Assembly (NCBI GenBank): GCA_002753615.1
Contig: PEAO01000015.1
Coordinates: 1-38,914 of the forward strand
Origin: Magnetococcales bacterium DCbin2
GTDB lineage: Bacteria > Pseudomonadota > Magnetococcia > Magnetococcales > UBA8363
Reading direction: 5' to 3'
DNA: 38,914 bases
Numbering within the stretch: the first letter of the stretch is position 1; each line of letters starts with the position of its first letter. Position numbers and translations under genes: made by a program. The notes below the pieces were generated by a model. The model was not told the origin of the DNA. It saw nothing but the letters and a program-made list of their open reading frames with translations, and ran no database searches. Of the stretch, positions 20,245-38,882 are shown piece by piece.

Positions 20245-21261
20245 ATGCCACAACTATGCCTTATTCTTGGAAACGGCTTCACCGTAGACATGCTTGGCCA
20301 CTTTCGTCAAACAGACAACATTGATGTCTTGAATCTTTTCCGATTGGGATCCGAAGTGCCCTGGCCAGTTGACAAAAAACCTGGTTTCCTGTCTTATAAA
20401 CATTGTCCGAACTTATGGAACCTTGGGGTTACCCCAAATATTTCCCAAAAAGATGCTTCACTTATTATTGAAAATATTATTTCTGTCCAAAACGCCCTGC
20501 TCTCTAATAGAGAAGCCAGTAATTTGATTGCAAACAGAAGAAATTCAAGCCCAATTTATGTTGGAGCTTACAATGAATTGACCGCATATCTTAAACATTT
20601 ATTCATCTATTATGACAATAAATTGTCAAAGGTGATTGCGCAAGGAAGCCCTTGGCGTTGGATAGAATACATTAAGAGAGTTATCGGTCAGTACGATGAG
20701 ATCACGATCATAACTTATAATTATGATATATGGCTAGAACGCCTATTGAAAGCTGCAAGTATCGATTTCAAGATTGCACTTATGGAAAATTTAAGCAATA
20801 AAATAACGATTCTAAAGCCACATGGCTCTATTGGATTTGTTCATAAAGATAAGTTGCCGTTAGATAGTTTCAACATCGAGAAAAATTATCTGTCGGGTGA
20901 TGCAGAGATTGGTGATTTCCGTATGGAATACGACGATCTACAAAATTATTATGCCGTTACCGCTTTGATACCGCCATCGGGCGAGTCAAAAAGGATAGGC
21001 AATCAGTGGGCCAAAAGTATCCGTGACGAGGGAAGAAATATTCTATCCCGATTTGGTACAGGGGACGATATCATCATCTGCGGTTTGTCCTATTGGCACG
21101 TTGACCGCGCAGAACTTGACGAGCTTTTGCTGACATGTGATTCCAACGTCCAAGTTTCCATGATCAATCCAAACCCATCTCCAACATTGAATGCTGTTCT
21201 CTCCAGTATCTTTGATAATTATTTTTTATATACATCGGCAAACATTCTGGAGCATTTGTAA
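20245..21261 (+). CDS. SIR2-like (AbiH-like) putative effector
   Basis: A 338-residue protein with a SIR2-like Rossmann layout. It opens with a strand into LILGNGFT (Gly9-Asn10-Gly11-Phe12), then has TYNYD (Asn159-Asp161) and KPHGS (His193-Gly194), and ends with IIICGLSYWHVD. The GNGF entry replaces the usual GAGxS and is reminiscent of AbiH-type abortive-infection proteins. It is only remotely similar to the SIR2-family protein at 15419. The stop codon directly abuts the start of the DUF262 gene, so the two are coupled. Codon use is clearly AT-richer than in LplT-Aas or the ABC operon, suggesting horizontal acquisition. NAD hydrolysis is inferred from family. Confidence 0.82.
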   Translation: MPQLCLILGNGFTVDMLGHFRQTDNIDVLNLFRLGSEVPWPVDKKPGFLSYKHCPNLWNLGVTPNISQKDASLIIENIISVQNALLSNREASNLIANRRNSSPIYVGAYNELTAYLKHLFIYYDNKLSKVIAQGSPWRWIEYIKRVIGQYDEITIITYNYDIWLERLLKAASIDFKIALMENLSNKITILKPHGSIGFVHKDKLPLDSFNIEKNYLSGDAEIGDFRMEYDDLQNYYAVTALIPPSGESKRIGNQWAKSIRDEGRNILSRFGTGDDIIICGLSYWHVDRAELDELLLTCDSNVQVSMINPNPSPTLNAVLSSIFDNYFLYTSANILEHL

Positions 21262-27799: not shown

Positions 27800-29152
27800 C
27801 TAGATGCCTGACCTGTCATAAGGATTTGTTGGACTGAAAATTGATGGACGGTTCGGATATTTTCGGGTTGGCGAAACGGTTGTCGTCCTTGATCTCATAA
27901 TCGCAGAGATCACCTCTTTGGTGTCGAATAATTGCGGTGGCGGGATGTAAATATTGGGATCCTTTGCGGCTGATTTGCAGGTCGAACCATCCGCGCCGAA
28001 GAGTTTCAGATTTGAAAGCCTTAAATGCCCGCCGTTGGATAATGGGAAATCCTTTTGTGACAGACATTTACCGTATGTTTTAGCCCCTACGAGGAACGTG
28101 TTTCCTGCGGAATCGGCCATGGTTTGGGCGAACACTTCGCCGGCACTTGCGGTATGCGGACCGACCAGAATCGAGATGGGACGGTTGAGAATTTTTTTGC
28201 CAGGGATACTATAATAATATTGGCTATCGCCTGTTTTATCCAAGGTTTTTGCCATAAGTCTGTCCTGGGGAATGAAGAGAGAGGCTGTATCGAGGGCTTC
28301 GTGGTAATCCCCACCCAAACAATATCTGAGATCCAAAAACAGGTGGTGCGTCGTGTGGGTTATGGCCAATATGGCCGCTTCCAGTGCATCACGGGTTTGG
28401 TGGGATGTGAACTTCAGGATTCTGATATAGAACACCGGATGCTGAGGACTGATAACGACATGGTTGACTTCAACGGGTGCGGGAAAGAAGTCTCTTTGGT
28501 GCAACGGAAGAGTCATTTCTTGATTGGAAGCGGGATGAATGAATGAAAACTGGACGGACATGTTGTGAAGGAAGGCGTTATCAATCTGTGCGGCAACGTG
28601 ATCCACAGTGAAGTCAGAGATTTTTTTTCCCTGAATGGCACGCAAGAACTGGGCATCCTCCAAGCCATCGTGAAAGGCTGCCCCCCCTTTGGCGGGTACC
28701 ATGAGTATGTTGTTTTTCCATGGAAGCAGCAATGTTCCCATGGCGCGTGTGGTCTCTTTTTCTAGCAGAGGTGTGATGGATTTGGGCTGGGGTGGGATGT
28801 AGGAGGCGTAACGATCCAGCGATTGGAGGAAAAGATTCAGGTTTTCTATGGTGAGGGGGTCCTCTGTGAGGTGGGAAGGAAACCGTTGGAAGAAGCGTTG
28901 CGCAATGGATTCCCCCGCTGGGATCGTGATTAAATGGCGATCGATGCGTGTGATCAGTTCGAGGGAAGGAATATCCACATTTTGTGAACGGGGGCGTGGG
29001 GGTGTTTCCGAGAAGAAGGTCAGCCCCATGGGGGTTCCCATCGCAGGGGGGACGATCCCAAAAAACATCAAAAAGATGATCAAAAATAGGCCAAAGAGAA
29101 CCATGACCATGGGAATCCATGGGGGATGACCCCCATGGATTCCCGTCATCAT
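27800..29152 (-). CDS. S41-family (CtpA-like) peptidase, membrane-anchored
   Basis: A protein of about 450 residues with an N-terminal membrane anchor (about 16-36), a PDZ-like region (about 135-220) and a tail-specific protease domain. The catalytic Ser336 sits in HTASAGE and Lys362 in TYGKCLSQ, so the Ser/Lys dyad is intact. LFLDLRYCLGGDYHEA corresponds to the conserved 'D.R.N.GG' strand. It probably cleaves C-termini of envelope proteins. The start is uncertain: ATG 29152 lacks a clear Shine-Dalgarno, TTG 29170 is in frame, and a perfect hairpin occupies 29111-29144 inside the early coding region. It is the last gene of a four-gene minus-strand series after two lipoproteins. Confidence 0.85.
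   Translation of the reverse strand: MMTGIHGGHPPWIPMVMVLFGLFLIIFLMFFGIVPPAMGTPMGLTFFSETPPRPRSQNVDIPSLELITRIDRHLITIPAGESIAQRFFQRFPSHLTEDPLTIENLNLFLQSLDRYASYIPPQPKSITPLLEKETTRAMGTLLLPWKNNILMVPAKGGAAFHDGLEDAQFLRAIQGKKISDFTVDHVAAQIDNAFLHNMSVQFSFIHPASNQEMTLPLHQRDFFPAPVEVNHVVISPQHPVFYIRILKFTSHQTRDALEAAILAITHTTHHLFLDLRYCLGGDYHEALDTASLFIPQDRLMAKTLDKTGDSQYYYSIPGKKILNRPISILVGPHTASAGEVFAQTMADSAGNTFLVGAKTYGKCLSQKDFPLSNGGHLRLSNLKLFGADGSTCKSAAKDPNIYIPPPQLFDTKEVISAIMRSRTTTVSPTRKYPNRPSIFSPTNPYDRSGI
29111..29144. repeat. Perfect 15-bp inverted repeat in 5' end of S41 gene
   Basis: Arms 29111-29125 and 29130-29144 are perfectly complementary with a four-base spacer (ATGA on the plus strand). In the S41 mRNA this would form a strong hairpin just after the candidate start codons, and might affect translation or mRNA stability. 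The encoded peptide GGHPPWIP is unremarkable. Confidence 0.6.
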
Positions 29153-29214
29153 TGGACTTTGAACGTGCAATGGATTGCTCTATGACCCGTAAGACTTATC
29201 CAATGGTGCGATCT

Positions 29215-29781
29215 TTATTGGGTTGGATCACGAACGAAAAGGGATTCTCCGCGTTCGCGCAGGATGGCATATTCACGGCGTAGCTGATCAAGCTGTTTTT
29301 CCAATAATTGGATCGTTTCTGGATTTGTGGAACCGGCGTCGCTGTTTTGGAGGGCAGAGGTTTTGTCATTGATTTGTTGCCGCATGGAAGCCAGTTTTTT
29401 GGCCAGTTCCCCCTTTTCCGAGGCTTTGAGATGTTTTTGTTTTTCCATGTTTTGGATTTTTTTGCGCAAATCGGCAAGATTGTCGGAGGTCGTTTGAACC
29501 TGGTCTCTCAGATCTTGCAACATCTCTTCCTGGCTGTGGATGTTTGATTCATAGAGTGCATTTTCTTGGTGGAGCTGGTTTTCCTGTTGTTTTAGCATCT
29601 GAAGCCGATCACGGCGTTGTTGTTCACGAAGATCGTAATCTCCGCCACTTTCGCCTTGGAGTCCACCGAGCAGTCCCCCCTGTCGCGGGTCATTATAGGG
29701 GTTGGGTCCAGAGGCACATCCTGGCAACAGCATTGTGAGCAGACCCAAGAGCAAGAGCGGGATCGAGAGATTTTTTTTCAT
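29215..29781 (-). CDS. Coiled-coil lipoprotein
   Basis: A 188-residue protein with a signal peptide and lipobox LLPGC (Cys22), a short Gly-rich linker, then a long, highly charged coiled coil (about 50-180) dominated by Gln, Glu, Lys and Leu. The start at 29781 has AGGA eleven bases upstream. It lies 60 bp after the glycine-zipper lipoprotein gene and 62 bp before the S41 peptidase gene. It resembles a periplasmic tether or spacer; function unknown. Confidence 0.8.
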   Translation of the reverse strand: MKKNLSIPLLLLGLLTMLLPGCASGPNPYNDPRQGGLLGGLQGESGGDYDLREQQRRDRLQMLKQQENQLHQENALYESNIHSQEEMLQDLRDQVQTTSDNLADLRKKIQNMEKQKHLKASEKGELAKKLASMRQQINDKTSALQNSDAGSTNPETIQLLEKQLDQLRREYAILRERGESLFVRDPTQ

Positions 29782-29841
29782 AGGAAAATGGTCCTGGCTT
29801 GATGGATAACGGGGTGTGACAAAGAGTGCAAGGGCTGGGTA

Positions 29842-30525
29842 TCAACGCCACGCACTGGACATTTCCGCCAATTGCCGATCTTCCTGACCAATGGCATTGA
29901 TTGCGGTGCGCAATTGGGCCATTTCTTGTTGCATGAGGTCTAGTTTTTCACGAGAAACGGAAGCGTCGTGGATCTTTTCTTTTTTGTTCATGCCGGTTTT
30001 GTAGGCATAGACCTCTTTTTTGGCTTGAAGTTCGTCGTCCAAGGCGGCGATGGTCTTATTGAGGTTGTCACGTTGTTTGGTAATGCTGGCCAAGTGATTT
30101 TGGAGATCTTGTTGATTCAACTGCCCCTGTTTTCTTTGTCGTTGCAGGGTTGCGGATTCGGCTGCGATGCGCGCGACGGTTTGTTGGAGTTCTCCCTGAT
30201 AATTTTGGGCGAAAACGCGGTATTCGTTGGTTTGGGCAATTTGTTGATCTAGGTTTTCCTCTTTGGCGATGCGCTGTTGTTTCATTTGTGCGACTTGATC
30301 TCCGACGATACTCCCGGCCAACAAGCCGACGATACCGCCAATGAGTGCCCCTTTACCCCGATCATTATGAGACAATGCCGCCCCGGTTATCGCACCGATG
30401 ACGGCTCCCGCCCCTGCCCCTTGTGCCGTGGTTGCCGTTCGGTCACTCATTTGTGAACCGGTGGCACATCCAGAAAGGATCAATGAAAACACCATGCAAC
30501 TGACAAGCGTTTTGGATTGAGACAT
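29842..30525 (-). CDS. Glycine-zipper lipoprotein with coiled coil
   Basis: A 227-residue protein with lipobox LSGC (Cys20). Residues about 36-78 form a glycine zipper (GAGAGAVIGAITGAALS...GALIGGIVGLLAGSIVG), typical of SlyB-like/YMGG outer-membrane lipoproteins. A charged coiled coil follows to the C-terminus. CGGAG precedes the ATG at 30525. The gene starts 22 bp after the kinase-like gene, so the two are likely co-transcribed; both end in coiled-coil regions predicted to face the periplasm. Confidence 0.85.
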   Translation of the reverse strand: MSQSKTLVSCMVFSLILSGCATGSQMSDRTATTAQGAGAGAVIGAITGAALSHNDRGKGALIGGIVGLLAGSIVGDQVAQMKQQRIAKEENLDQQIAQTNEYRVFAQNYQGELQQTVARIAAESATLQRQRKQGQLNQQDLQNHLASITKQRDNLNKTIAALDDELQAKKEVYAYKTGMNKKEKIHDASVSREKLDLMQQEMAQLRTAINAIGQEDRQLAEMSSAWR

Positions 30526-30547
30526 GCGTTTGACTCCGTTGTGAACG

Positions 30548-32050
30548 TTATGGATAGGTCGCTAGTACTGATTTAAAATTATCGATAATGCTTGATTCCC
30601 AAGAGTTGGATTGTAGCGTGTCGCAGTGTTGTACATGGGTTTCCAGGAGTTTGATCCTCAAGGATACTTTTGGATCACCTCCCTCTTTCTCCAAGTAATC
30701 TTGGTTGGCTTGAGTCACATCTCCGGGTGAGAAAGCGCATAAATATTCTATCCCATTTTTATAGGCGACCAAAAATTGGTCGAGCCTCTCTTTTTCTTTT
30801 TGTAATAGTTCTTCATCTTCTTTGATGTTTATATTATATCTTGTTGATATAGCAGCCAAATCAATACTATTTTTTAGTCTTTTAGCTGCGGTATTTACCC
30901 GGAGTACGGCTTCGCCAACATCTTTTGATGATTTTAATGTCGCGGAAATGGTATTGCGAATTTTTGTCTGTAGATTGATATATTGTTGTTCGGAGTATCT
31001 TCTTTCGAGGAAGATAGCCCCCAATAACATGAGAAATGCCAAAGCCAGCATGAAGCGGTTTCGCCGTAGGAATGTGAGGGGTTTATCGATGGGTTCCACT
31101 GGGAACGGGGGTGGTTCTGGTGGGTTGGGCAGGGCTTTTTTGGGACGGCGTATGGGTAAATTGTGGAGGGTTTGGGTGAACGCTTCGACCCATTCCTGGG
31201 GGGTAGGGCATTGGGTGGGGTTGTGGGTGCCCAGGACCATGAGGCGATCAAACAAACTGATTAATTCAGGAGACAGTGCGTCATAGAGGGGGGCATTTCT
31301 GGGTGGTCGGACGAGGCTGCGATTACGGCGATGGTAGGGGGTCAAACCGTTCATGGTGCGATGATCCAGGGTATTGACGTGGCCTTTGCCGCGCCATTGT
31401 CCCTGGAAAGGGTGATGGCCCTGCATGAGCAGTTTGAAAAGGGTGATCCCCAGGCTGAAAGCGTCCCATGTTTGTAGCTTACGATATTTTTTATCGGAAG
31501 GGAGAGAGGCCCAAAGGCTAGCGGCGTCACTTTCCCGGTCTGACAGATTGTCCACCCCAAGCCAGACCAACTGTCCTTTTGAGGATAACATGAGGTTATC
31601 TTCGATGATTTCGTGCGAAAATATTTCTTTATGGTGTAAATCGACCATGGCCTGGGCCAAGTGTAAACCGGCCTCGTGACAGGAACGCCAATGGTTATCT
31701 TGTTTTGATTTGAGTAGTTTGGAACCAGAGTGGTGGAGGCTTGAGAGTGGGACCAGGCTATAGAATGCCGCCATGGTAAAACCGCAAAAACGTTTTTGTT
31801 CATCGTAAAGGAGGGCTTTGGGCCAGGAAAATTCAAATGTTGTTTCGGAGTGGTCCCGTTCTTCGTTTCCCAGTTCCAGGAAACGTTTGCATTGATTTTC
31901 AATGGCCGCACAATCTTCAAAGATGACTTTGGCGATCACATCGCCACGGGAGGCGATCTTATAGATCCCCTTTTTGGAGCCATGTTCAATGGGGTCGTCA
32001 TCAAAAATAAATATTGGATATCCATTCTGGTCGTATCGTTCTATCGACAT
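30548..32050 (-). CDS. Transmembrane protein-kinase-like protein, probable pseudokinase
   Basis: A 500-residue protein with a kinase fold (about 20-290), Pro-rich juxtamembrane linker, one TM (about 332-348) and a coiled-coil C-terminal region. The beta3 lysine is kept (Lys41 in IAKVI), as is subdomain IX WDAFSLGITLFKLL (Asp196) and GHHPF, as in YegI-like kinases. The catalytic loop is SHEIIEDN (145-152): aligned on Asn152, the catalytic Asp is Glu147 and the Lys is Ile149. The DFG equivalent reads LGVDN (164-168). I therefore call it a probable pseudokinase. The start is ATG 32050 with GAGGG eight bases upstream; TTG 32065 overlaps that site. It leads the lipoprotein/S41 series and is divergent from the 838-residue gene. 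Confidence 0.75.
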   Translation of the reverse strand: MSIERYDQNGYPIFIFDDDPIEHGSKKGIYKIASRGDVIAKVIFEDCAAIENQCKRFLELGNEERDHSETTFEFSWPKALLYDEQKRFCGFTMAAFYSLVPLSSLHHSGSKLLKSKQDNHWRSCHEAGLHLAQAMVDLHHKEIFSHEIIEDNLMLSSKGQLVWLGVDNLSDRESDAASLWASLPSDKKYRKLQTWDAFSLGITLFKLLMQGHHPFQGQWRGKGHVNTLDHRTMNGLTPYHRRNRSLVRPPRNAPLYDALSPELISLFDRLMVLGTHNPTQCPTPQEWVEAFTQTLHNLPIRRPKKALPNPPEPPPFPVEPIDKPLTFLRRNRFMLALAFLMLLGAIFLERRYSEQQYINLQTKIRNTISATLKSSKDVGEAVLRVNTAAKRLKNSIDLAAISTRYNINIKEDEELLQKEKERLDQFLVAYKNGIEYLCAFSPGDVTQANQDYLEKEGGDPKVSLRIKLLETHVQHCDTLQSNSWESSIIDNFKSVLATYP

Positions 32051-32119
32051 GGTGGAAACCCTCAAAGTTGGTAGCGGATGAATGAAGGAGAGATGATTGT
32101 TACGATCATCATGGAGTCG

Positions 32120-32148
32120 TTGACAAAAAAATATGGCGCGTTCAAAAT
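32120..32148 (+). promoter_or_regulatory. Candidate promoter for 838/801-residue gene pair
   Basis: TTGACA (32120-32125) is an exact -35. A 17-bp spacer leads to CAAAAT (32143-32148), four of six for -10. It lies in the 279-bp divergent region between the pseudokinase and the degenerate-NTPase gene and would give a leader of about 180 nt. Confidence 0.35.
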
Positions 32149-32329
32149 AGACAAAATAGTCTTATAAAATGTCAAAAGTCAGAATATATTTACCAATCTG
32201 ATTCCTAGGTTCACCTTGTAAAGATACGTTTTTGCATCATTGATCCATGATTTGCAAGGATTTGTCAGGTGTGGAGTGATAAAAACGGATGGTGATCATT
32301 TTTTCGATCAACAATTGTGACAGGATTGG

Positions 32330-34846
32330 ATGTGGGTCATGACGCAAGAAGATGAAAGTCCTAAGGACACGGAGGGTGTGGGTCCCAAGTCGCCAGAACC
32401 CACCCAGACCCAGGCTACGAAGTTTCAGACGGGCGCGAAGGAGGAGGGGGATTTGGGTGCTGACTCGCCAAGGGGTCAAGACCAAGAACCTAACGGAGAG
32501 AAACCACCAGAATCGCCCAGTGGGTCGAGGCAGGAAGGGGAGAAAAAAGAGAAAAATACGCAGGATATCAATTCAGGGGATTACAGCAGGAATACTCAAT
32601 TTCAGCAAAGAATCAAAGCTGATTTTGTCTTCTTGCAAAATAAATTAGGGGCCGAAACAGCCGACAATGAACCGGATGCCAAGCAAAAGGCATTGCGTGA
32701 TCATCTGAGTCCATTGGATTTTGGACTTTTGAATCCCGACTGGTCACCCAAAGATTTGGCAAAAATGATGAAATCGATTGCCGAAGAACGCCTGTTGATC
32801 TTGTCGTCATCGGACCAAGGGCGGTCTTTGGATGTTGCGCGTAGAATTCTATCTGGCATTCATCGGGTTTCAGCATACGAGGTTAATTTTTATTCTATCA
32901 ACCGATCCAATTATAATTTGAACGATTTATTGGATCTTGATTATGGTGACAAGGATTCATGTAAAGCGTTGGTCGTGGATAATCATACCGACCCGAATTT
33001 TGTCGGTACCATTTATATGGATAATTTAACCAACGTTGATCAGATCAAGAAAAAATTAAAAGATGGCAATCGTTTTATTCTGTGTCGCGTGCATCCCAAT
33101 CATTTGGAAACCGTAGTTCATAGTGGAAAAAAGATATACATCAATATTTTTGATCTTGATGCCCATGAAACAACAGAGGCACGGCAGTTTTCCGAAGTAA
33201 TCATCAGTCCAAAGCAGAGTCAATCCAAGTCCGACAATCGATTACAAAAGATTGTAGGTTCAGAAACCATGAATCGGGAAATATGTAGAACTGTGTGTTA
33301 TATCGCAGTGCAATTTCCCAATTTATCATTCGAGGAGTTTCAGAGTTTAGTCGCTTCGTTGCTGCCGGATGGTGATATTCCAACCCCGCAGGAAACTTAT
33401 GCAACGCTCCAATGGCCTTCCGAGGGGAAGTCTTATCAAAAGGGGTGGGAGCAGAACATGGAGTCCTATATCAATCATTGCCAGCTTGAATGGAAGCACA
33501 GCAATGGTTTGCGTTTCATGGGTTTCAAAGAGTCTGATTTGGAATTGGAATTTCGGCACTATTTCAATAATGATCAACCGGTTTTTCTGCATAACCTATT
33601 TGCAATCATTCGTCAGCGTCGCCTTCTTCTGGATTTTTCATCCGAGACCGTTGCCGATCATCTGATTCGGATCTACCGCGAACGGATTGCCGCCACTGCG
33701 GCGATCCCGGTCGTCAATCAGTGGCTGATCGATGTACTGCCCACTCGTGATTCAGGCCAGCAGATTTGGGGGCGTTTCAACCAATTGTTAAAGGAATTGA
33801 ATCAGCATCATTTGGAGTCATCCGTCGATTACTTACTCCGATATTTGTCCAAGGAGGCCCCCTATCAGGGGATATTACTGCATTATATCAAGCAATTTGG
33901 GCATTCTGCCAAGATTGATGCAAAAGTGTGGTTTGTTGAATTGCTCAAGGGGTCATCCGATTCATTGCAGGCTGAAGCGTACAATGGGCTGCTCGCCTAT
34001 TTAAAGGGGAATCCCAATAAAATATTTGAGAATTGTCACTATATTTCTTCCCTTGTCCCGGCATTTCATCAGGGTGATGTCGAGATGAGCGTTGTCCAAA
34101 GAATGTTGAGTCAGATTATTTTTGATTTTTCTGCGGCGGTTGTCTTTGGAACCCCGGTTGGGAAGTATGGTCAGAAAACCCTTGGAATTTGTTTTTTCTC
34201 CCGAAAAGATACTGCCGAAAATGAGTTATTGACACTCCTTTCTGGTTGGTTGCTCATGGCGGAATATCATTTCCGTTCGATGGAGAAAGAAGAGCGAATC
34301 AGTCATATCCTGTTATTTCTTGGTTTGGTTGTCGATAGATATGATATTGAGGACGAAATAGATCAATTCATAATTTTTATAGTCTCTCTCATCGAAGAGG
34401 ATGAGACGCATTCTATTTTGAAAGCGATTGATCACCACCAACCCCAGATTGAAAAATCAAATATCTATCTACAGATGTTTGCGTCTGTCCTAGATGTTAC
34501 CAAGGGAAATCCATCATTAATACTGCGTTTTTGTATAGCCGTGATTGTCTATAAATGGTTCCTCATGATCCATGGGTTGGAAAGCTCGGGTTCAAATCTG
34601 TCGAATCAGGCTGAAGTTTTGGAAAAATTTAATCAAATGCTCCATCACATGGTATCGCAGGCCAAGAAAGAGGTTGTACCACTGCGGAATTGGCCTGTGA
34701 CCATGATGAGGGCCATATTTTCAATTATTCAATCCTATCGCCGCATTCCGGTGAATGCGGTGGATTCTGAAAAATTCAGGCAAATGGCGGTACGCGAAAA
34801 ACTTGTCAAACGTCTTATCGCCCATATCAGAGGGGCGATGTCCTAA
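32330..34846 (+). CDS. Large STAND-like protein with degenerate P-loop and INSGDY N-terminal motif
   Basis: An 838-residue protein (or 835 from ATG 32339). Residues 1-75 are disordered, rich in Glu, Pro, Ser and Gly. INSGDYSRNTQ follows at 80-90, a motif shared with the TIR protein. A Rossmann-like NTPase region (about 135-330) has LLILSSSDQGRS (155-166), aligning with hhhh-GxxxxGK[ST] but with Ser159 for Gly and Arg165 for Lys. A Walker-B-like strand ALVVDN (Asp217) and FILCRV follow. The remainder (about 360-838) is helical and superhelix-like. This resembles inactivated STAND NTPases of conflict systems, where a helical sensor array detects a signal. It is 21 bp upstream of the multi-SPFH gene. 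Coding status is certain; the family call is moderate. Confidence 0.7.
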   Translation: MWVMTQEDESPKDTEGVGPKSPEPTQTQATKFQTGAKEEGDLGADSPRGQDQEPNGEKPPESPSGSRQEGEKKEKNTQDINSGDYSRNTQFQQRIKADFVFLQNKLGAETADNEPDAKQKALRDHLSPLDFGLLNPDWSPKDLAKMMKSIAEERLLILSSSDQGRSLDVARRILSGIHRVSAYEVNFYSINRSNYNLNDLLDLDYGDKDSCKALVVDNHTDPNFVGTIYMDNLTNVDQIKKKLKDGNRFILCRVHPNHLETVVHSGKKIYINIFDLDAHETTEARQFSEVIISPKQSQSKSDNRLQKIVGSETMNREICRTVCYIAVQFPNLSFEEFQSLVASLLPDGDIPTPQETYATLQWPSEGKSYQKGWEQNMESYINHCQLEWKHSNGLRFMGFKESDLELEFRHYFNNDQPVFLHNLFAIIRQRRLLLDFSSETVADHLIRIYRERIAATAAIPVVNQWLIDVLPTRDSGQQIWGRFNQLLKELNQHHLESSVDYLLRYLSKEAPYQGILLHYIKQFGHSAKIDAKVWFVELLKGSSDSLQAEAYNGLLAYLKGNPNKIFENCHYISSLVPAFHQGDVEMSVVQRMLSQIIFDFSAAVVFGTPVGKYGQKTLGICFFSRKDTAENELLTLLSGWLLMAEYHFRSMEKEERISHILLFLGLVVDRYDIEDEIDQFIIFIVSLIEEDETHSILKAIDHHQPQIEKSNIYLQMFASVLDVTKGNPSLILRFCIAVIVYKWFLMIHGLESSGSNLSNQAEVLEKFNQMLHHMVSQAKKEVVPLRNWPVTMMRAIFSIIQSYRRIPVNAVDSEKFRQMAVREKLVKRLIAHIRGAMS

Positions 34847-34867
34847 TTCTGGCGGGGGATTTTTATC

Positions 34868-37273
34868 ATGATGCTTGAACACCAGATTGGTTCTGTTTTC
34901 AAAAAAGTTTCCAGTCCACCATCGGGTCGTTTGGAACCAAATTGGCGTTTGCTCTATTATAACCCAAAAACAAAGAAAACTTTTACCCCATCTTGGTGGA
35001 ATAGAATAAGAACACCAGAAGTTGAATATTACATTGTCAAAGATGTTTCCGGGTTTACGGATGCTGCGCAGCACCCTGGTCTACAGCTTAAACTCAATGA
35101 TTTTCCCCGCGACCGACTCTTGAGTGTTGTCGTCAGGTATCAGGCCTATTGCATTCCCCATCAGGAATCATCTTTTATAAGCCAATTACAAGATCGCAAT
35201 AATCCCGGCCCTTCATTGGATCTGTTGATTGTGCAATGGATCAGAAGCGTCATTGCCGGAAGAGAAGAATATTATATTAACGGATTCTTCCAATACCAAA
35301 ATGATATGCAAGTGCGTGTCGAAGAAAGGGCTAAGGATTTTGGAATCGCTTTGAAGGTTTATATCAATCCAGAAAAATTTGATCATATTCAAAACACCCA
35401 AAAATTGACGATCGATGACCACGCTGTCGAAGTCCCCGGCTATCCTGTACCGCAGAGGGTAAGTATGAACCTTTCTCTGCAATTAATCCCGGAGAGAAAA
35501 ATCTATGCACTGGTTGAAAATCATCGCATACCCAGTCTTTCGGATTTGATCAAACAGACGGTGTCTCGCGGTGTTCTGGAAAGATATAAACCCTATGATT
35601 TTTTCTCAGACTATCATTCTGGGAAATTGAAAGAATATTTGCAACGGTTATTACTGGAAGCGTTGGCGGAAAGGGGATGGCATGTTGCCAATTGGAGTTT
35701 GACTTTCCTTGAGAAACGGCCTGTCAAAAAATTTGATGATACGCTGACCGCAGTGGTTACCATCAGTCTTCAATTTCCCAAGCCGATTGAGGTTCATAAC
35801 CAAGCGCACGCCCATCTCCAAGATTATGCCAGATATCGGCTGGGGGGGGCACCCGATTTGCAAGAATGGTTTGCCAAAACAATGGATAAAACCATTAAAA
35901 GCGTTTTGATCGATAAACCCTATGAAGAGGTGTTGGCCGGGTTCGATGAAATTAAAGAGCATATCATCCGAGATATGGAGGTGGAAGCCAAAGAGATCGG
36001 TTTCACACTGAAGCCGTTGATGAGTAAAACCGAACTTGGCCCTGAAAAATTATTGGTAGGGTTTGTTCTGGAGCAGCACCAGGCAGAGTTTCAAACCAAT
36101 ACGATGGGGGTTCCGGCCAGCCTTGGTTTCTATATCAACGGACGGCTCCGCAAGCTTGGGGCCGTCAAACATTTGCTGAAATTGGAAGTGAACGAGCCGG
36201 GAATCATTGATAAAACGATGACCGATAAGGTGGTTGAGAGGATTCGAGGGTATCTTCTTGGATTGAATCCTGAAAAGTTTTATATGGAGTTTGAGCAAGC
36301 CAAACAGGAACACGACCGATCGGTCCGCGAAAATTTGCACACCATCATCCAGTCAACACTGGAAAAGTTTGATGCCACAGATCTTGAAATCAGAATACTC
36401 CCGGGGAATACCCACATCACCGAAAAATTGATGACATTGATCGCTGTCCACAGACGGTTCACGGTGAATATATTCCCCCATCAGGGGGAATATCACATTC
36501 CTATTGAAGGTGAATTCCGGGTCAATGGTGTTAACGAAGGGGGGTGGAGTGACTTTCTGCAACGGGATTTCGATTTAGATGCCGTTGGTGCGCAATTATG
36601 TAGCCATATTGCAGCCTCTTTTTCGCAATTCACCGAGGCACAACTTTTGGATGCACTCAAATCTTTGAATAAGTTTCAGCGGAACCTCTGTGAACTGACA
36701 GCCCTTCATTTGAGAAAATTCTATGGCATCGAAGTCGAAGTATTTAATATCAAAAAGCTTCCATCCTATAGCGAAGATTTGAACATTAAGATACAGAAAC
36801 GCAAACGTGACTCCCTTTATGATAAGCGTATTGAACTGATTAATCTACAGGGACAAAAGGATAATCTGGATCGTGAGGCTTTTCTTATTGCACACCGGGA
36901 AAAGTTGAATAATGAAGCCGCACATGTTGAGCTTTACGACAAGAAACTGAAGCAATTGATCGATGAATCAGAAGATTTTACACGGGAGGAATTGGATGCC
37001 AAGGTGTTCAAAGGCGATCGAGATTCCATCTCGCCAACATATTCCGAGTTGCAAACGGGTCTACTCGACTCCGATAAACAATTGGCCGATCAAGTGTCCC
37101 AACCACCACGCGATGATCTCGATACCCCGGAATTGAAAATGTTTCCATGGGACGTTCTGGATGATTCCGCAGCCACGCTCAGGGAAGAAATTGCGCGTAA
37201 ACAAGGCAATGCTCACAATTCCAAAAACGAGAAGAACGACGACGAAAATATTTATGAGGGAGAAACCCTATAA
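34868..37273 (+). CDS. Protein with about five tandem SPFH/band-7-like modules
   Basis: An 801-residue soluble protein without a membrane span. I see five repeats of about 95-100 residues, at about 72-168, 195-285, 290-388, 415-512 and 528-632. Each has beta-strands ('v.v.v.....'), an amphipathic helix (for example WIRSVIA, QTVSRGVLERY, KTIKSVLIDKPYEEV, VERIRGYLLGLNPEKF), then 'l...i......GI.l.v.i', as in DFGIALKVYI, EIGFTLKPLM and FYGIEVEVFNI. This is the SPFH/stomatin pattern. A coiled coil (about 640-705) and acidic, probably disordered tail follow. SPFH proteins oligomerise into membrane-linked rings or cages; five in one chain without an anchor would be unusual. It is co-directional with the degenerate NTPase gene and convergent with the TIR gene. 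Confidence 0.6.
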   Translation: MMLEHQIGSVFKKVSSPPSGRLEPNWRLLYYNPKTKKTFTPSWWNRIRTPEVEYYIVKDVSGFTDAAQHPGLQLKLNDFPRDRLLSVVVRYQAYCIPHQESSFISQLQDRNNPGPSLDLLIVQWIRSVIAGREEYYINGFFQYQNDMQVRVEERAKDFGIALKVYINPEKFDHIQNTQKLTIDDHAVEVPGYPVPQRVSMNLSLQLIPERKIYALVENHRIPSLSDLIKQTVSRGVLERYKPYDFFSDYHSGKLKEYLQRLLLEALAERGWHVANWSLTFLEKRPVKKFDDTLTAVVTISLQFPKPIEVHNQAHAHLQDYARYRLGGAPDLQEWFAKTMDKTIKSVLIDKPYEEVLAGFDEIKEHIIRDMEVEAKEIGFTLKPLMSKTELGPEKLLVGFVLEQHQAEFQTNTMGVPASLGFYINGRLRKLGAVKHLLKLEVNEPGIIDKTMTDKVVERIRGYLLGLNPEKFYMEFEQAKQEHDRSVRENLHTIIQSTLEKFDATDLEIRILPGNTHITEKLMTLIAVHRRFTVNIFPHQGEYHIPIEGEFRVNGVNEGGWSDFLQRDFDLDAVGAQLCSHIAASFSQFTEAQLLDALKSLNKFQRNLCELTALHLRKFYGIEVEVFNIKKLPSYSEDLNIKIQKRKRDSLYDKRIELINLQGQKDNLDREAFLIAHREKLNNEAAHVELYDKKLKQLIDESEDFTREELDAKVFKGDRDSISPTYSELQTGLLDSDKQLADQVSQPPRDDLDTPELKMFPWDVLDDSAATLREEIARKQGNAHNSKNEKNDDENIYEGETL

Positions 37274-37290
37274 TTGGGAAGTCCGTGGGA

Positions 37291-37325
37291 GGGAGAATAA
37301 GAAATTTGGAATTTCTTACTCTCCC
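37291..37325. terminator. Bidirectional terminator-like hairpin between convergent genes
   Basis: Arms 37291-37306 and 37310-37325 pair over 16 bp with a single mismatch and a three-base loop. The hairpin starts 18 bp after the multi-SPFH stop and includes the TIR stop codon on the other strand, so it can end both convergent transcripts. There is no long T-run, so rho-independent strength is uncertain. Confidence 0.6.
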
Positions 37326-37846
37326 TGACGGCAGGCTTCCAACAATTTCTTATATTCCTCCAGTGCATTGGCCCGAAGGTCGATTTGCTTGTATTGGGCC
37401 AGCATATCTGGCAGTTTGCAACTTTGATATAAAACAGGGATAAATCGGCGTGTGCGATTGGCGGGATCACGAAACATGGCTGCCCCCCGTTCTACCTGGG
37501 TCCACTCTGACTGGAGATACTGAGGCGAGAAAATGGCTAAAAAGATCCGGGATTTTTCCAGTCCATTTTCAATGGCTGCGGGAATAGGATCTCCAGGTTT
37601 GAGTATCCACTCGTCAAACCAGATTTTCAAGCCGTCGGCCAAAAGTTTTTCGGCCAACGGTTGTGCAAACTTTCGATCCTGGCTGGAATAACTGATAAAA
37701 ACATCATAACCTTCTGAGGGAGACCAACCTGTCGGTGGACGGCAAACGGGATGGGGCTGTTCTGGTGCAACGCCAGGATGGTGATGAACGGTCACCTTTT
37801 TCTGAATGTTATTGCAATAGTCCCCAGAATTGATGGTTTGCGTCAT
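37316..37846 (-). CDS. TIR-domain protein with INSGDY N-terminal motif, putative NADase effector
   Basis: A 176-residue protein. Residues 5-15 read INSGDYCNNIQ, matching the motif in the 838-residue protein. A His/Pro-rich linker (20-45) leads to a TIR domain (about 46-170): YDVFISYSSQD in strand A, a BB loop at FDEWILKPGDPI, SRIFLAIFSPQYLQSEW, and Glu119 in WTQVE at the catalytic-Glu position of NAD-cleaving TIRs. All landmarks are intact. Bacterial TIRs cleave NAD+ or make cyclic-ADPR signals when clustered by a receptor. The shared motif suggests the neighbouring NTPase-like protein is that receptor (inference). Its own promoter lies to the right. Confidence 0.93.
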   Translation of the reverse strand: MTQTINSGDYCNNIQKKVTVHHHPGVAPEQPHPVCRPPTGWSPSEGYDVFISYSSQDRKFAQPLAEKLLADGLKIWFDEWILKPGDPIPAAIENGLEKSRIFLAIFSPQYLQSEWTQVERGAAMFRDPANRTRRFIPVLYQSCKLPDMLAQYKQIDLRANALEEYKKLLEACRQGE

Positions 37847-37993: not shown

Positions 37994-38644
37994 TTATCGG
38001 GTCAATCGGATCGGTCCTTCGTAGATGGCCAGGGTGGAGATTTGTTTGATGGAGAGCATGGGGCCACCCAGGCCGGCATAATCAAGCTTGCTGTCGCCGG
38101 AATTTTCTTTTTTATCCAGGTTGCCATAGTCCATTTTGCGCATGACCGCCCCATCGAGTTTGGCCTTGCGTAGGTCGGTTTGCCGGATGGCGGCGCGGGA
38201 GAAATCGGCCCCCTGGAGTCTGGCACCGTACAGGTTGGCGAGGCTCAGTTGCGATGCGGTGAGGCGGGTGTTTTGCAACCAAGCGTATTGCAATCGCGCC
38301 ATGCTTAAATCGGCGTTGGTCAGATTGGCCCCTGAGAGATCGGCACTGTTGAGTGAGGCCCGCGCCAGATGGGCGCGGGTCAGGTTGGCCATCACCAGAT
38401 TGGCATCTTTAAGGTTGGCGCGCCACAGGTTGGCACCCGTCAGATTGGCCTCCCGAAGATTGGCGGCACGTAAATCGGCTTCGGCCAGATAAACCCCCGA
38501 AAGATCGGCCTCCGATAAATCACATTGGCGGCATTGATTGGTCTGGACCAGTTTGGTCAGATCATCGGCCCGAAATGCCCAGGAATCTCCGCCAAACCAT
38601 CCCAGTGTCCCGATGATGGTTGCCATTCCGATGATCCGTTTCAT
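37994..38644 (-). CDS. Exported pentapeptide-repeat protein
   Basis: A protein of about 216 residues from ATG 38644, which has GGAGGAGA just upstream; a longer frame to 38725 is less likely. A signal-peptide-like segment covers residues 1-24. CRQC-DLSEADLSG (about residue 36 onward) introduces some 20-25 tandem A(D/N)LxxA pentapeptides, which fold as a right-handed quadrilateral beta-helix. A short non-repetitive tail ends the protein. Pentapeptide proteins include DNA-gyrase mimics, but an exported one with CxxC at the start is more likely an envelope protein; its role is unknown. Confidence 0.87.
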   Translation of the reverse strand: MKRIIGMATIIGTLGWFGGDSWAFRADDLTKLVQTNQCRQCDLSEADLSGVYLAEADLRAANLREANLTGANLWRANLKDANLVMANLTRAHLARASLNSADLSGANLTNADLSMARLQYAWLQNTRLTASQLSLANLYGARLQGADFSRAAIRQTDLRKAKLDGAVMRKMDYGNLDKKENSGDSKLDYAGLGGPMLSIKQISTLAIYEGPIRLTR

Positions 38645-38882
38645 GGTCTCCTCCGCAATAAAACTGAGCTGTTCAGATCGACGGGGTGATCCCACGATCC
38701 CAAGGACAAAAGAAAAGTGCTGCATCCCTTCATCTTGTCATGTCCCAGGGAGAAGGGTCACTGTGTACCTGGAGAATTTGTCGGCAATGGGGCGTTCTGG
38801 GTGAATGAAAAAATGGAAAAGGGGACATTTTGATGGGTTCGTTATGGGGAGGGGAGAGATAAAAAAATTCCGTGGGCGTTTT

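What the first reader, a model, noticed from the sequence alone, without database searches (positions are those of the whole stretch)
32567..37834. Shared INSGDYxxNxQ motif links a TIR protein to a degenerate STAND-like protein
The TIR protein (residues 5-15; 37802-37834) and the 838-residue protein (residues 80-90; 32567-32599) both carry INSGDY, then N at +3 and Q at +5, i.e. 8 of 11 positions identical, in otherwise unrelated and low-complexity N-termini. The genes are on opposite strands with the multi-SPFH gene between them. In bacterial immunity, receptor and effector often share a short N-terminal adaptor (effector-associated domains or amyloid-type signalling motifs). I propose that this motif is the receptor-effector docking element, possibly new.
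Basis: partly seen in the sequence, partly recalled or inferred. Interest (0 to 1): 0.82.

Follow-up and report, generated by a model that had tools for sequence, protein, structure and literature searches.

The report
Matching tags on neighbouring defence-like proteins
Two neighbouring genes of a Magnetococcales-type bacterium, one for a TIR-domain protein and one for a receptor-like protein, carry the same short tag near their front ends, and a distant copy of the same gene pair carries a different tag that again matches, which suggests that the tag is how the receptor finds its effector.

Summary
The motif is really there and is longer than reported: TQxINSGDYxxNxQ, 10 of 14. An 8/11 match means little by itself (0.95 pairs per shuffled window); 10/14 is rare (53 of 2761 shuffled windows). 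The 11-residue pattern occurs in 1 of 398 genomes searched in the phylum, this one, twice. In a sister species (G026) both copies have lost GDY and the pair is not significant.

The strongest evidence is a distant copy of the module in another genome (G145), found through the SPFH-like gene, not the motif. TIR-like, receptor and SPFH-like genes lie on one strand. TIR and receptor again share an N-terminal motif at the corresponding place, but another one: NIIQ[K/R]GxAT. It is the best of 91 N-terminal pairs there; cross-lineage pairs do not match.

The receptor model resembles STAND/AAA+ ATPases; no homologue shows a Walker A motif. Best reading: a locus-specific receptor-effector pairing tag, in the manner of bacterial amyloid-signalling (BASS) pairs. 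Amyloid character is not shown; 0 of 21 peptide comparisons were significant.

The parts
37316..37846 (-). TIR-domain protein, 176 aa; predicted effector
   Evidence: Pfam TIR_2 111.1 bits against a cut-off of 28; best PDB match AbTIR NAD(+) hydrolase, E 1.2e-15
37802..37843 (-). TIR copy of the tag, TQTINSGDYCNNIQ (residues 2-15)
37340..37702 (-). TIR domain
37490..37492 (-). Glu119, aligned with the Glu of the WTNYE stretch of AbTIR (its catalytic role there is recalled)
   Evidence: alignment printed
32330..34846 (+). 838-aa STAND/AAA+-like protein without a Walker A motif; predicted receptor
32558..32599 (+). receptor copy of the tag, TQDINSGDYSRNTQ (residues 77-90), at the end of a low-complexity N-terminus
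   Evidence: low complexity read by eye
32663..33739 (+). modelled part (residues 112-470): alpha/beta core, helices, beta-hairpin between helices like a winged helix
   Evidence: model pLDDT 66.1, pTM 0.46; Foldseek and VIA-align matches
34868..37273 (+). 801-aa SPFH/Band 7-like protein, partner of the receptor gene in all four genomes found
   Evidence: Band_7 15.2 bits, under the cut-off of 23.6; G145 homologue 20.1 bits; 4 of 398 genomes have the protein
30548..32065 (-). 505-aa kinase-like protein with a membrane-like segment (read by eye), divergent from the receptor gene; kept in G026 and G034
   Evidence: Pkinase E 0.0085, under cut-off; homologues 87% and 29% identical

Best explanation
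The tag is a short homotypic pairing element between a receptor and its effector. The 838-aa protein (a STAND/AAA+-like fold without Walker A, next to an SPFH-like and in three of four genomes a kinase-like protein) would change state on sensing an invader or envelope stress and expose its N-terminal tag. It would gather TIR proteins by tag-tag contact, so that clustered TIR domains become active and consume NAD+ or make a signal molecule. The tag diverges quickly but stays matched within a locus, so that each lineage has its own specificity. Shown: the shared tag, its recurrence with another sequence in a distant copy of the module, the TIR domain with its aligned glutamate, the lack of a Walker A motif, the receptor-SPFH pairing in four genomes. 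Indicated by a model of moderate confidence: the STAND/AAA+-like fold. Inferred: physical contact, clustering, NADase activity, role in defence, amyloid-type (cross-beta) contact.
For: Tag match 10/14 in the window. G145, found by SPFH homology and not by motif, has TIR-like, receptor and SPFH-like genes on one strand. Its TIR and receptor share NIIQ[K/R]GxAT within a 28-residue ungapped match (9 of 28 identical), best of 91 N-terminal pairs (p 0.0012; p 0.003 in the restricted test). The place corresponds: before the NTPase-like domain in the receptor, at the N-terminus of the TIR protein. The seven cross-lineage combinations score 20-31, p 0.15-0.97. Each tag pattern was found in 1 of 398 genomes, twice, once per partner. 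Third codon positions are the least alike between the copies (window: 12, 11 and 6 of 14; G145: 14, 17 and 11 of 28), so the likeness is of protein rather than of freshly copied DNA. The G145 TIR protein is 30% identical to the window's.
Against: In G026 the pair is weak: MSP 32, p 0.057, rank 5 of 36; and the G026 TIR matches the window's receptor better (40, p 0.004) than its own. The tag is not specially conserved: 4 of 14 residues differ in each protein between G000 and G026, against 13.6% in the rest of the TIR protein; in the receptor 16.7% outside the tag, though the stretches just before (35.6%) and after (35.0%) the tag changed more. dN/dS of the receptor's first 115 codons is 0.96 and of the TIR extension 0.46. 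D and Y changed in both G026 copies to different residues, so no covariation is seen there. Only two matched lineages are known. With full-length G145 proteins 40 of 3000 shuffles reach the match. G034 has no TIR gene in the 18 kb read, and a search of its genome with its N-terminal peptide found only itself. No physical evidence.
Confidence: 0.57

Rival explanations
1. Chance. N-termini rich in N, S, G, D and Q give short matches, and a reader scanning many windows will find some; the G145 match is a second coincidence.
For: 8/11 matches are expected about once per window. The window's 10/14 has an expectation of about 0.02 per window, not negligible over many windows. G026's pair is not significant, and at the G026 and G034 loci other pairs reach p 0.003-0.006 among 36. 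The tag region shows little constraint.
Against: The G145 locus was reached through SPFH similarity, and its TIR-receptor pair is first of 91 N-terminal pairs, at the corresponding place in both proteins.
Confidence: 0.23
2. Relic homology. TIR and receptor tags descend from one former fused or duplicated N-terminus, or were exchanged by gene conversion, and are now decaying without function.
For: GDY was lost in both G026 proteins, and in the TIR protein the tag changed faster than the rest.
Against: Third positions are the least alike in both lineages, which does not suit a fresh copy; two lineages with different tags and dissimilar TIR proteins would each need a copying event.
Confidence: 0.12
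3. Both proteins bind a common third party (for example the SPFH-like protein or the membrane) through the same short linear motif, and not each other.
For: The SPFH-like gene is beside the receptor gene in 4 of 4 genomes and the TIR gene is in the same cluster in 3 of 4.
Against: Different tags in different lineages would need the third party to co-diverge. This is weak evidence: in G145 the TIR-SPFH match (MSP 30, full length) is low, but receptor-SPFH is fifth of 91 N-terminal pairs (p 0.042).
Confidence: 0.08

Closest known systems
Bacterial amyloid signalling sequences (BASS) pairing NLR proteins with effectors
   Same: Short motif at the N-terminus of an NLR protein, repeated in an effector encoded next to it; BASS motifs also occur, less often, with TIR domains (PMC7889193, passages). 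Some pairs were found by local alignment of neighbouring proteins, as here (PMC8086366, passages).
   Different: The receptor shows no Walker A motif, the module contains an SPFH-like protein, the effector is TIR and not Bell, and no significant likeness to three published amyloid-signalling peptides was found (0 of 21 tests at p < 0.05). BASS profiles were not available and the BASS paper is not held.
Effector-associated domains (EADs) of NTP-dependent conflict systems
   Same: Homotypic adaptor on a core component and, often by an adjacent gene, on an effector (PMC7159879, passages).
   Different: Here it is a tag of 14-28 residues; no Pfam family matched the tag region at E up to 1.
Avs/AVAST STAND proteins
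   Same: Avs4 is the top Foldseek match of the receptor model (E 7.7e-5); an AVAST5 filament is ninth (E 2.3e-3).
   Different: Low TM-scores (0.19-0.31 by query length in the ten best rows), no Walker A, effector in a separate gene, no PADLOC hit for the receptor.
AbTIR-type and Thoeris-type bacterial TIR proteins
   Same: Best PDB match is AbTIR, with the glutamate aligned; the G145 TIR weakly matches ThsB_TIR (20.8 bits, cut-off 21.2).
   Different: No ThsA hit among the four window and three G145 proteins scanned; the tag is not seen in the 16 of 18 other TIR loci whose N-termini one search printed.

Membership tests
BASS / amyloid-signalling pair | Matching short motif in receptor N-terminus and in a nearby effector | tested here: met
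   Window and G145; weak in G026
BASS / amyloid-signalling pair | Match to one of the BASS1-10 profiles | not testable with these tools
   Profiles not on hand; three published peptides (one BASS3, one BASS3-like, one fungal sigma) gave no p < 0.05 in 21 comparisons
BASS / amyloid-signalling pair | Cross-beta aggregation of the motif | not testable with these tools
   Needs peptides; AmyloGram and PASTA2 are reported not suited to such motifs (PMC8086366, passages)
BASS / amyloid-signalling pair | Receptor is an NLR with a recognisable NTPase | tested here: inconclusive
   STAND/AAA+-like predicted fold, no Pfam NTPase hit at E up to 1, no Walker A in 4 homologues
STAND NTPase (Avs, Apaf-1, CED-4 type) | Walker A GxxxxGK[ST] | tested here: not met
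   Loop after the first strand reads SSSDQGRSL (G000, G026), AGPDQECLR (G034), QCSVAEIAM (G145); read by eye
STAND NTPase (Avs, Apaf-1, CED-4 type) | alpha/beta NTPase core followed by helices and a winged helix | tested here: inconclusive
   Seen in a model of pLDDT 66; Foldseek's five hits with E up to 0.001 are Avs4 (two chains), SAMD9, CED-4 and ORC, with Clp ATPases close behind; VIA-align's rows are mostly AAA+ over model residues 8-168
EAD adaptor | Known EAD domain | tested here: inconclusive
   No Pfam hit in the tag region at E up to 1; that Pfam holds EAD models is recalled
TIR domain | Pfam TIR_2 above cut-off | tested here: met
   111.1 bits against 28 for the window protein; the G145 protein is just below (26.8 bits, E 8e-6)
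SPFH / Band 7 | Pfam Band_7 above cut-off | tested here: not met
   15.2 (window), 20.1 (G145) and 12 bits (G034) against 23.6; one weak internal repeat (hhalign probability 16.6, E 0.0015)
Thoeris | ThsA partner | tested here: inconclusive
   No ThsA hit, but only 4 window proteins and 3 of G145 were scanned

The most novel reading that the evidence does not exclude
A so far unnamed receptor-effector module of Magnetococcales: a STAND-like protein that has lost its Walker A motif, an SPFH-like scaffold and an interchangeable TIR effector, joined by a fast-changing, lineage-specific homotypic tag; dissimilar TIR proteins are taken up and 'addressed' by acquiring the matching tag.
Probability: 0.4. 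Interest if true: 0.72.

Novelty: new variant of a known kind. Interest (0 to 1): 0.56.

Why it matters
If true, it adds a lineage for which my searches found no such report (0 papers with 'magnetococc' and 'amyloid signaling'; 0 with 'magnetococcales' and 'tir domain'; open-access library only). It would show the tag scheme working on a receptor that probably cannot hydrolyse ATP, and link it to an SPFH-like protein. It also suggests a simple way to find partners: the best-matching N-termini within a locus may point to receptor and effector even where no known motif is present.

Tried and rejected
INSGDYxxNxQ as a conserved motif: rejected. Only this genome carries it among 398 searched; a regular-expression scan for looser forms over the 40 loci then held, in frames of 90 or more codons, met only the window's own copies. 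Two viral contigs carry the pattern, one in a 131-codon frame without likeness to these proteins by eye, one in a 34-codon frame. A third place in this genome with the six-residue DNA pattern (C33) gave no such reading in a frame of 90 or more codons.

A DNA repeat or recent duplication: not favoured; third positions are the least alike.

A known family for the receptor by sequence: no hit above a cut-off in Pfam or NCBIfam, no PADLOC hit at E up to 1, and none in PDB sequences at E up to 10. Sub-threshold hits, taken as noise: FSH1 (E 0.09), TDE2712 family (0.062), VMAP-M1 for the G034 homologue (0.32). No Avs or CED-4 row is among the 50 shown by VIA-align; that excludes nothing.

'Multi-SPFH': of ten block comparisons only one shows a repeat beyond the overlap of the blocks (B1 with B3, 63 columns, probability 16.6, E 0.0015).

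More copies: the one genome-contig scan gave only the G026 and G034 loci; none in viral contigs (SPFH alignment) or plasmids (G145 SPFH protein). A search of the G034 genome with its N-terminal peptide found only itself; among 36 N-terminal pairs at the G034 locus none of the five best involves the receptor.

One search is void: my pattern was one base short and missed even the window, so it says nothing.

Literature: the BASS paper (Dyrka et al. 2020) is not held; I know it only as cited. PMC8086366, PMC7889193, PMC7159879, PMC7885112, PMC10907252 and PMC12881547 were seen as passages only. Other papers were seen in search listings only.

Full report
WHAT IS THERE. The window is contig C11 of a genome of 3.36 Mb in 201 contigs, 78% complete. 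The two named relatives found by protein similarity are titled Magnetococcales MAGs. The TIR protein (37316-37846, -) and the 838-aa protein (32330-34846, +) carry INSGDYCNNIQ and INSGDYSRNTQ at the stated places. TQ upstream also matches, so the shared stretch is TQxINSGDYxxNxQ, 10 of 14.

CHANCE. Among 276 pairs of 24 window proteins two have an 11-residue stretch with 8 identities, and 20 shuffled windows had 0.95 such pairs on average; so 8/11 is about what chance gives. Ten of 14 is rarer: 53 of 2761 shuffled windows, and 12 of 449,207 shuffles of the two proteins. The length was fixed after seeing the match. With whole proteins the raw score is only joint third of 276; with the first 150 residues of each protein TIR-receptor is first of 276 (p 1.4e-5), the next pair having p 0.00094 (p from a Gumbel fit to 60 shuffles per pair).

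SISTER SPECIES. G026 has the same gene order with 83% (receptor), 86% (SPFH-like) and 85-86% (TIR) identity. Its tags read IDSGAHSRNTQ and INSGNGCYNTQ: GDY is gone in both, while TQ.I.SG....N.Q is common to all four. The pair is weak there (p 0.057; rank 5 of 36, p 0.084). Four of 14 tag residues differ in each protein. In the TIR protein that is more than in the rest (13.6%). In the receptor it is more than in the rest as a whole (16.7%) but less than in the stretches just before and after it (35.6%, 35.0%). dN/dS is 0.96 for the receptor's first 115 codons, 0.46 for the TIR extension, 0.26-0.40 for the four module genes, 0.15-0.20 for three neighbours. So literal conservation is not the argument for function here.

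DISTANT COPY. An SPFH profile of three sequences found a further genome, G145. There TIR-like (240 aa), receptor (922 aa) and SPFH-like (799 aa) frames follow each other on one strand, TIR and receptor 13 bases apart with first-start reading. The receptor is 17-20% identical to the others over the alignment. The TIR protein is only 30% identical to the window's and scores just below two cut-offs: TIR_2 26.8 bits (28), ThsB_TIR 20.8 bits (21.2). MAKKNIIQRGQATAPGSVVIQAGGAVRV of its N-terminus matches LGNNNIIQKGTATGDRPQIFQASKNINI of the receptor, 9 of 28 identical. The place in the receptor corresponds to that in the window: between the low-complexity N-terminus and the NTPase-like domain. It is first of 91 N-terminal pairs (p 0.0012; the next has 0.012). 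With full-length proteins 40 of 3000 shuffles reach it.

COGNATE AGAINST NON-COGNATE. Of 12 combinations of three TIR N-termini and four receptor N-regions, window x window scores 51 (0 of 4000 shuffles) and G145 x G145 45 (p 0.003). Within the window/G026 lineage the others are: window TIR x G026 receptor 32 (p 0.050), G026 TIR x window receptor 40 (p 0.004), G026 x G026 32 (p 0.057); so in this lineage the cognate G026 pair is not the best for its TIR. The remaining seven, all across lineages, score 20-31 with p 0.15-0.97. Each tag pattern was found in 1 of 398 genomes, twice, once per partner; the patterns were drawn from those sequences, so this shows rarity, not an independent find.

G034. 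A fourth genome has receptor (25%), SPFH-like (31%) and kinase-like (29% identity) genes, and by eye two lipoprotein-like genes and an S41 peptidase, but no TIR gene in the 18 kb read. So TIR looks like an optional partner and receptor plus SPFH-like protein like the core: the latter was found in 4 of 398 genomes, the receptor in the same 4 among 48 of the order.

THE RECEPTOR. No family matched by sequence above a cut-off. The model of residues 112-470 (pLDDT 66.1, pTM 0.46) has an alpha/beta core, a helical part and a beta-hairpin between helices like a winged helix. Foldseek's five hits with E up to 0.001 are Avs4 (two chains), SAMD9, ORC and CED-4; ClpAP, Apaf-1 and AVAST5 follow. TM-scores are low. 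VIA-align gives mostly AAA+ proteins, best Z 10.9 with 146 residues at 3.6 A over model residues 9-166; SAMD9 spans the model at Z 9.3 but 12.3 A. I call it STAND/AAA+-like. None of four homologues shows a Walker A motif (read by eye).

THE EFFECTOR. The best PDB match is AbTIR, an NAD+ hydrolase; its WTNYE aligns with WTQVE of the window. That this glutamate is catalytic is recalled. The G145 protein has HWINFE at the like place.

MECHANISM. Most likely the receptor exposes its N-terminal tag on activation and collects TIR proteins by like-with-like contact, as proposed for BASS and EAD systems (PMC7889193, PMC8086366, PMC7159879, passages). Whether the contact is cross-beta is open: against three published amyloid-signalling peptides 0 of 21 comparisons reached p < 0.05. 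The likeness of GDYxxNxQ to GDGNVQ of the Frankia BASS3 peptide (printed) is by eye only. The SPFH-like protein may tie the complex to the membrane (inference from the family; Band_7 scores are below cut-off).

VERDICT. Observation confirmed and extended. Interpretation partly right: a pairing element, matched within a lineage, not a conserved motif. Two matched lineages are few and the sister pair is weak; I put the pairing reading at 0.57.

Noticed in passing
L052 6839-11721 and L053 6209-12045: TIR proteins of G053 and G057 stand in a row with a MoxR-like AAA ATPase gene and a long further gene, resembling a MoxR-centred conflict system with a TIR effector; named by eye.
   Followed up: no
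window 30548-37846 against 29215-30525 and 37994-38725: The four module genes have dN/dS 0.26-0.40 between G000 and G026, three neighbours 0.15-0.20: the module evolves faster than these neighbours.
   Followed up: partly
window 27800-32065: The kinase-like gene (29% identity) and, by eye, an S41 peptidase and two lipoprotein/glycine-zipper genes keep company with the receptor-SPFH pair also in G034; none is recognisable by eye in the 20 kb of G145 read.
   Followed up: partly
window 20245-21261: 338-aa protein with a weak SIR2_2 hit (E 0.0054, under cut-off), about 11 kb from the receptor gene.
   Followed up: no
window 37994-38725: Pentapeptide-repeat protein beside the TIR gene, kept beside it in G026.
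   Followed up: no
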